Made by a program: the position numbers and the translations under genes. A stretch of 64,000 nucleotides of DNA from Citrus sinensis (taxonomy: Eukaryota > Streptophyta > Magnoliopsida > Sapindales > Rutaceae): the NCBI RefSeq assembly GCF_022201045.2, contig NC_068557.1, forward strand, positions 11,716,501 through 11,780,500. The letters run 5' to 3'. This document shows positions 6,749-7,055 of this stretch, piece by piece (the stretch's first letter is position 1; each line of letters opens with the position of its first letter). The notes under the pieces were generated by a model. The model saw only the letters and a program-made list of their open reading frames with translations, was not told the origin of the DNA and searched no databases.

Positions 6749-7055
6749 ACTGGGGGTTATTGCTCATTTTTGTACTTGCTGTTTTATTTTCCAATTACTT
6801 CTTCAATTAAGAGAAGAAAAGAGAATAGTATAAGAATCCAAAATAGTAGGAATTCTCTTATCCCATTCGGAAGAAGCGCATCTTATAATTATCTATGACT
6901 GTTTATGTCTCTAGCGTGACCACTTGCAAAAATGTGCAAAAATGTGGAGGGAAGCGGGATAAATGGCCGATACTACTGGAAGGATTCCCCTTTGGATAAT
7001 AGGAACTGTAACTGGTATTCCTGTGATCGGTTTAATAGGCATTTTCTTTTATGGT
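6749..7055 (+). other. psbL-psbJ fragment: Chloroplast DNA insertion: psbL 3' end, spacer and truncated psbJ
   Basis: From 6749 the plus strand encodes WGLLLIFVLAVLFSNYFFN and a TAA stop at 6808-6810, the C-terminal half of photosystem II protein PsbL. After the intergenic spacer, an ATG at 6963 opens MADTTGRIPLWIIGTVTGIP and continues VIGLIGIFFYG, the first 31 residues of PsbJ, before the match breaks at about 7055. Gene order and strand match the plastid psbE-psbF-psbL-psbJ operon. Both genes are truncated and sit inside a nuclear retrotransposon, so they are not functional plastid genes. The reading frames are undamaged, which suggests a fairly recent transfer. Confidence 0.93.

What the first reader, a model, noticed from the sequence alone, without database searches (positions are those of the whole stretch)
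6749..7055. Chloroplast psbL-psbJ fragment lodged inside an Athila retrotransposon
About 307 bp of plastid DNA (PsbL C-terminal half, spacer, first 31 codons of PsbJ) lies in the 3' region of the element, between the env-like frame and the polypurine tract. Reading frames are undamaged while the host element's genes are riddled with stops. Either plastid DNA was inserted into this one copy by end joining (a NUPT), or the family captured it and spread it. The second case would be a retrotransposon family that carries plastid sequence.
Basis: partly seen in the sequence, partly recalled or inferred. Interest (0 to 1): 0.75.

Follow-up and report, generated by a model that had tools for sequence, protein, structure and literature searches.

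The report
Private chloroplast scrap inside one retrotransposon
A 300-base piece of chloroplast DNA was pasted, probably during repair of a broken chromosome, into one old retrotransposon copy of a plant; no other copy found carries it, so it is an ordinary case of organelle DNA landing in the nucleus.

Summary
Window 6751-7055 is plastid psbL-psbJ DNA: last 19 codons of psbL with stop, spacer, first 31 codons of psbJ. It sits in a minus-strand, Athila-like Ty3/gypsy element bounded by two LTRs (3989-5430, 15033-16476) and a 5-bp target duplication. The insert is private. Each junction occurs once in the 300-Mb assembly at up to 3 mismatches. A 307-bp plastid probe finds this full-length place and five fragments of 78-90 bp, none inside this element family. 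In 38 of 39 other scored copies (40 of 328 candidates were scored) the flanks meet at or within a few bases of the insertion point; one is uninformative. An empty-site pattern occurs at 62 places. Capture and spread is refuted for this assembly. Both junctions share microhomology with one target (TGG left, TGGT right), a published signature of organelle DNA joined at breaks. The insert is antisense to the element's RNA, which argues against capture by reverse transcription. Whether it is younger than the element (LTR K2P 0.054) cannot be settled without the species' plastome. Verdict: an ordinary NUPT; low interest.

The parts
6751..7055 (+). Plastid-derived insert (NUPT); unambiguous core 6754-7051, flanked by TGG (6751-6753) and TGGT (7052-7055) shared with the element
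6751..6810 (+). 3' part of psbL: last 19 codons and stop
6811..6962 (+). psbL-psbJ spacer; 6833-6919 also matched by nuclear fragments L005/L006 at 85%
6963..7055 (+). 5' part of psbJ: first 31 codons, no stop
   Evidence: 6950-7027 is 77/78 identical to a separate nuclear fragment on C3 (L002)
3989..16476 (-). Athila-like Ty3/gypsy LTR retrotransposon that hosts the insert
3989..5430 (-). 3' LTR (TG...CA)
   Evidence: 94.2% identical to the other LTR, K2P 0.054
15033..16476 (-). 5' LTR
3984..3988 (.). Target site duplication ATCAC, one side
16477..16481 (.). Target site duplication ATCAC, other side
15009..15026 (-). Primer binding site; 1134 places in the genome match it with up to 2 mismatches. 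Read as tRNA-Asp type (tRNA sequence recalled, from no call)
5431..5445 (-). Polypurine-tract-like stretch before the 3' LTR (approximate ends)
   Evidence: read by eye
14125..14559 (-). gag piece (Retrotrans_gag)
   Evidence: E 2.4e-24
10639..11898 (-). reverse transcriptase / RNase H piece
10040..10303 (-). integrase core piece (rve)
7113..7646 (-). open frame of 177 aa next to the insert, no Pfam match

Best explanation
It is a private NUPT. A double-strand break occurred in one already integrated Athila-like element at ACTGG/TGCG, and it was closed with about 300 bp of free plastid DNA as filler, each junction being guided by 3-4 bp of microhomology (microhomology-mediated end joining or a short template switch). 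Shown: plastid identity, breakpoints, the empty site in other copies, uniqueness in this assembly, shared bases at both junctions. Inferred: the break-repair step, that it happened after integration, and that the filler was plastid DNA rather than a mitochondrial copy of it. The fragment is inferred to have no function.
For: The 307-bp probe matches at full length only here; all 6 first-look candidates were scored and the other five are fragments of 78-90 bp. None of the five shows this element in the 1.5 kb kept on either side beyond the plastid part, except a 29-bp primer-binding-site match near L004, which belongs to another LTR element that lies next to that fragment, not around it. 38 of 39 other scored copies have their flanks meeting at or within 15 bases of the point (32 with exactly the 3-bp overlap; the one 24-base case reads as empty); 1 is uninformative. 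Read directly, 29 of 29 non-window loci, that is 25 unique copies, are empty. The empty-site pattern has 62 places at up to 3 mismatches against 1 for the reversed control. Left and right junction patterns have one place each. In random joins of this element and this plastid segment, homology of 3 or more bp occurs in 6.2% and of 4 or more in 2.1%; product about 0.001. Microhomology of 1-7 bp or blunt joining is described as the hallmark of NUPT integration (PMC6215612, passages; PMC7037861, passages).
Against: The microhomology was judged after the fact on one event, so 0.001 is only suggestive; a staggered break with a 3-bp fill-in gives the same sequence. PMC12181080 (title, abstract start and passages) finds that break repair by NHEJ and MMEJ suppresses plastid-to-nucleus transfer in tobacco, so the pathway is not simply the promoter of such events, although its introduction says junction sequences implicate both. 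No reads were available to exclude an assembly error. No plastome or mitogenome was available, so a mitochondrial intermediate is open, and so is the order of element and insert.
Confidence: 0.88

Rival explanations
1. Capture and spread: the family acquired the plastid segment and copied it to new sites.
For: Precedent in print: a review passage describes a NUPT proliferated 23 times in the HSY region (papaya, species recalled) with Ty3/gypsy elements within 1.5 kb of most copies (PMC7037861), and retrotransposition is proposed as a spreader of NUPTs (PMC12572781, passage).
Against: No other place has the segment at full length or either junction. 38 of 39 other scored copies have an empty site, 1 is uninformative.
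Confidence: 0.01
2. Capture during reverse transcription in the cycle that made this copy (template switching onto a plastid RNA), so that the insert is as old as the element.
For: It is private to one copy and both junctions show short homology. The dating does not exclude it.
Against: The psbL-psbJ coding strand is antisense to the element's RNA, whereas capture of the plastid mRNA would place it in the same sense. Plastid transcripts are not expected in cytosolic particles (established knowledge).
Confidence: 0.03
3. The plastid sequence came through the mitochondrial genome (plastid-like mitochondrial DNA) rather than directly from the plastid.
For: Plastid pieces are common in plant mitochondrial genomes (recalled).
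Against: No other sequence lies between the plastid part and the element at either edge. It cannot be tested further without the mitogenome.
Confidence: 0.07
4. Assembly artefact: plastid reads wrongly joined into a repeat.
For: No reads could be inspected.
Against: The segment is only about 300 bp, inserted with no loss of target bases, inside an element whose LTRs and target duplication are intact.
Confidence: 0.03

Closest known systems
NUPTs (nuclear integrants of plastid DNA) joined by NHEJ/MMEJ
   Same: Short plastid fragment in a nuclear chromosome with microhomology at both junctions, located in a retrotransposon.
   Different: Nothing of substance; the target happens to be the 3' region of one Athila-like copy.
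NUPT proliferated 23 times in HSY with Ty3/gypsy elements nearby (as described in a passage of PMC7037861)
   Same: NUPT associated with a Ty3/gypsy element.
   Different: There the sequence multiplied; here it is single-copy, and lies inside the element.
Athila lineage of Ty3/gypsy retrotransposons (the target)
   Same: gag, then RT-RNase H, then integrase, and an extra-ORF region before the 3' LTR.
   Different: This copy is decayed and carries the plastid insert; phylogenetic placement was not tested.

Membership tests
NUPT | Sequence of plastid origin | tested here: met
   PsbL and PsbJ matches to photosystem II proteins
NUPT | Lies in a nuclear chromosome, flanked by non-plastid DNA | tested here: met
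   Inside an LTR element on a 32.9-Mb contig
NUPT | Empty site exists in paralogous copies | tested here: met
   38 of 39 other scored copies, 1 uninformative
NUPT | End-joining junction signature (blunt or 1-7 bp microhomology) | tested here: met
   TGG and TGGT
NUPT | Near identity to the species' own plastome | not testable with these tools
   No plastome held; the probe found no plastome contig in the assembly
Retrotransposon family carrying plastid sequence | Same segment with the same breakpoints in at least two copies | tested here: not met
   One copy only
Athila (Ty3/gypsy) | Ty3/gypsy order: gag, RT-RNase H, integrase | tested here: met
Athila (Ty3/gypsy) | Extra ORF between pol and 3' LTR (most OTA elements, PMC6317226 passages) | tested here: met
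   Transposase_32 match at 7995-8441 and a 177-aa frame
Athila (Ty3/gypsy) | Athila ORF-1 domain (PF03078; in 16% of Athila elements, PMC6317226 passage) | tested here: not met
   Not found in the 12 of 22 pieces (60 aa or more) that were scanned. Not a strict requirement, since most Athila elements lack it
Athila (Ty3/gypsy) | No additional RNase H (its presence marks Tat, PMC6317226 passages) | tested here: inconclusive
   None seen in the 12 of 22 pieces scanned; the copy is broken
Athila (Ty3/gypsy) | Reverse transcriptase phylogeny | not tested
   No tree made

The most novel reading that the evidence does not exclude
The plastid segment was acquired during the reverse-transcription or integration cycle that created this copy, so a retrotransposon replication intermediate, not a resting chromosome, took up plastid nucleic acid, but the product never spread.
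Probability: 0.04. Interest if true: 0.4.

Novelty: new member of a known kind. Interest (0 to 1): 0.1.

Why it matters
It gives an empty-site-controlled example, exact to a few bases, of plastid DNA inserted into a plant nuclear genome, and a clear negative for the idea that sitting inside a retrotransposon is enough for a NUPT to be spread. Otherwise it is routine.

Tried and rejected
Dating the insert against the element. LTR divergence is K2P 0.054 (74 differences in 1438 aligned sites), about 2.1 My at 1.3e-8 or 3.8 My at 7e-9 substitutions per site per year (rates recalled). In the 50 plastid codons there is no stop and no amino-acid change that the comparisons assign to the insert. Two PsbJ residues (T17, P20) differ from the three PDB sequences aligned, but both are shared with the fragment on C3, so they look like plastome states. 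A hand estimate expects about 3 amino-acid-changing substitutions since the LTR date (P of none about 0.05). But window-private bases in the element flanks number only 5 of 895 columns (32 of 895 if bases seen in up to 10% of copies count), which would predict roughly 0.6 to 4. Age order is not settled.

In one search I also printed probabilities (0.0014 and 0.25) for 246 sites that agree with another nuclear plastid fragment. I reject both: choosing sites by agreement removes exactly the sites that could have changed. That call also lists 22 sites where the window differs from the fragment covering it and 30 uncovered sites; most of the 22 lie in the spacer and cannot be assigned to either copy.

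The L004 fragment (C1:6989318) lies just outside the 5' LTR of a different element (LTR pair 6989453-6990822 and 7000521-7001890, 99% identical). Copies of that LTR elsewhere lack the plastid part: of 41 listed matches, 40 cover only query 223-301, about the LTR start (40 of 257 candidates scored). L005 and L006 are the two arms of a tandem duplication of about 17 kb, with only those two full matches in the genome. Neither is a carrier family.

Considered and rejected: the insert as a normal part of the family's 3' region (absent in the informative copies); functional psbL/psbJ transfer (both truncated). Not pursued: host species, other collections as a source of plastome, structure prediction.

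Full report
What is there. The finding's coordinates hold plastid DNA. On the + strand, 6751-6810 encodes the last 19 residues of PsbL and its stop, 6811-6962 is the psbL-psbJ spacer, and 6963-7055 encodes the first 31 residues of PsbJ. PDB sequence searches returned only PsbJ (30 distinct sequences) and only PsbL (29 distinct sequences).

The host element. Two LTRs, 3989-5430 and 15033-16476, are 94.2% identical, with TG...CA ends and a 5-bp target duplication ATCAC on both sides. The element reads on the minus strand: primer binding site 15009-15026, gag (Retrotrans_gag, 14125-14559), RT/RNase H (10639-11898), integrase core (10040-10303), an extra-ORF region with Transposase_32 (7995-8441), a polypurine-like stretch and the 3' LTR. 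This fits Athila-like Ty3/gypsy elements as described in PMC6317226 (passages). No tree was made, Athila ORF-1 was not found, and only 12 of the 22 stop-to-stop pieces of 60 aa or more were scanned. The frames are broken; the longest piece is 428 aa. The plastid segment lies between the extra-ORF region and the 3' LTR, about 1.3 kb from the polypurine stretch.

Is it shared by the family? (a) A 307-bp plastid probe found 6 places, with all 6 first-look candidates scored: this one at full length, and five fragments of 78-90 bp. Compared with the element, the five match only through the plastid part, apart from a 6-bp alignment extension and a separate 29-bp match in L004. L004 reads on into genuine plastid sequence. 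(b) A 1201-bp probe spanning the site gave 78 matches, which group into 40 places; 40 of 328 first-look candidates were scored, so this is a sample. One place is the window. Of the other 39, 38 have the two flanks meeting at the insertion point: 32 with exactly a 3-bp overlap, and 6 with overlaps of 15, 4, -1, -1, -8 and -24. The -24 case (C5:13475504, L015) reads as empty. One place (C4:15536219) starts beyond the site and is uninformative. (c) Read directly, all 29 non-window loci, which are 25 unique copies, join left flank to right flank: 27 with the 3-bp overlap and 2 with one extra base. (d) An empty-site pattern has 62 places at up to 3 mismatches, against 1 for the reversed control. 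(e) The left and right junction patterns, at up to 3 mismatches, have one place each, this one. The segment is private to this copy in this assembly. The search tool warns that it skips very common words and that counts of repeats are lower bounds.

Other plastid pieces near retrotransposons. The L004 fragment lies just outside the 5' LTR of another Ty3/gypsy-type element (LTR pair C1:6989453-6990822 and 7000521-7001890). The sequence right after its 3' LTR (from 7001890) matches, at 81%, the stretch beside the L005 plastid fragment. The likely reading is the reverse case: an element that jumped into an older NUPT (inference). The listed LTR copies of that family lack the plastid part. L005 and L006 are arms of a tandem duplication of about 17 kb. 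Neither shows a family carrying plastid DNA.

How it got there. Relatives read ...GGACTGGTGCG...; here it reads ...GGACTGG GGGTTATTG ... TTTTA TGGTGCA.... The plastid edge on the left is TGGGGG (PsbL Trp-Gly codons) and on the right TATGGTTCA (seen in L004). So TGG on the left and TGGT on the right are shared by plastid and target, and no target base was lost. In 200,000 random joins between this element and this plastid segment, homology of 3 or more bp occurred in 6.2% and of 4 or more in 2.1%. Having both is unlikely by chance, though this is one event judged afterwards. Microhomology of 1-7 bp, or blunt joining, is given as the hallmark of organelle DNA inserted at breaks (PMC6215612, passages; PMC7037861, passages). 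PMC12181080 (passages) says that junctions in plants implicate both NHEJ and MMEJ, but its own finding is that break repair suppresses plastid-to-nucleus transfer, so the role of these pathways is not one-sided. The psbL-psbJ sense strand is opposite to the element's RNA, which argues against a template switch onto plastid mRNA. I therefore favour break repair with plastid DNA as filler.

Age. The LTRs give K2P 0.054. The insert shows no stop and no amino-acid change assignable to it, which leans towards an insert younger than the element. But the test is small and the calibration loose (5 to 32 private bases of 895 flank columns). The plastome needed for a real date was not available.

What it is not. 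It is not a family that carries plastid sequence, and not a functional gene transfer: both genes are truncated and the PsbJ frame ends 14 codons into the element. Spreading of NUPTs by Ty3/gypsy elements has been suggested elsewhere (PMC7037861, passage; PMC12572781, passage); this case gives it no support. Co-location of NUPTs with retrotransposons is already described, and it is mixed: PMC12572781 reports a positive correlation in 16 and a negative one in 10 of its 30 species (passages). This is a new instance of a known kind.

Noticed in passing
window 14204-14310 (+) and 62501-62604 (-): Rfam snoR71 (RF00097) matches above its gathering score at both places, but each match is antisense to a Retrotrans_gag reading frame, and the second place has no blastn match to the element at E 1e-5. 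The Rfam family may be picking up the antisense of Ty3/gypsy gag rather than a real snoRNA; a whole-genome count was asked for three times and not answered.
   Followed up: partly
L004 / L043-L045 (G000:C1:6989318-7002045): An LTR element (LTRs 6989453-6990822 and 7000521-7001890, 99% identical) lies directly beside a psbJ fragment, and the sequence after its far LTR resembles the neighbourhood of another plastid fragment: probably a retrotransposon that inserted into an older NUPT.
   Followed up: partly
L005 and L006 (G000:C8:3834960 and 3818024): Two matches to the psbL-psbJ spacer about 17 kb apart lie in the arms of a tandem duplication (91-97% identical over most of about 10 kb and more); L005 is followed by what looks by eye like an inverted psbJ piece, so a complex NUPT duplicated with its surroundings.
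   Followed up: partly
window 1429-1663: Short diverged tandem repeat (start-to-start spacing 112 and 55 bases) outside the element.
   Followed up: no
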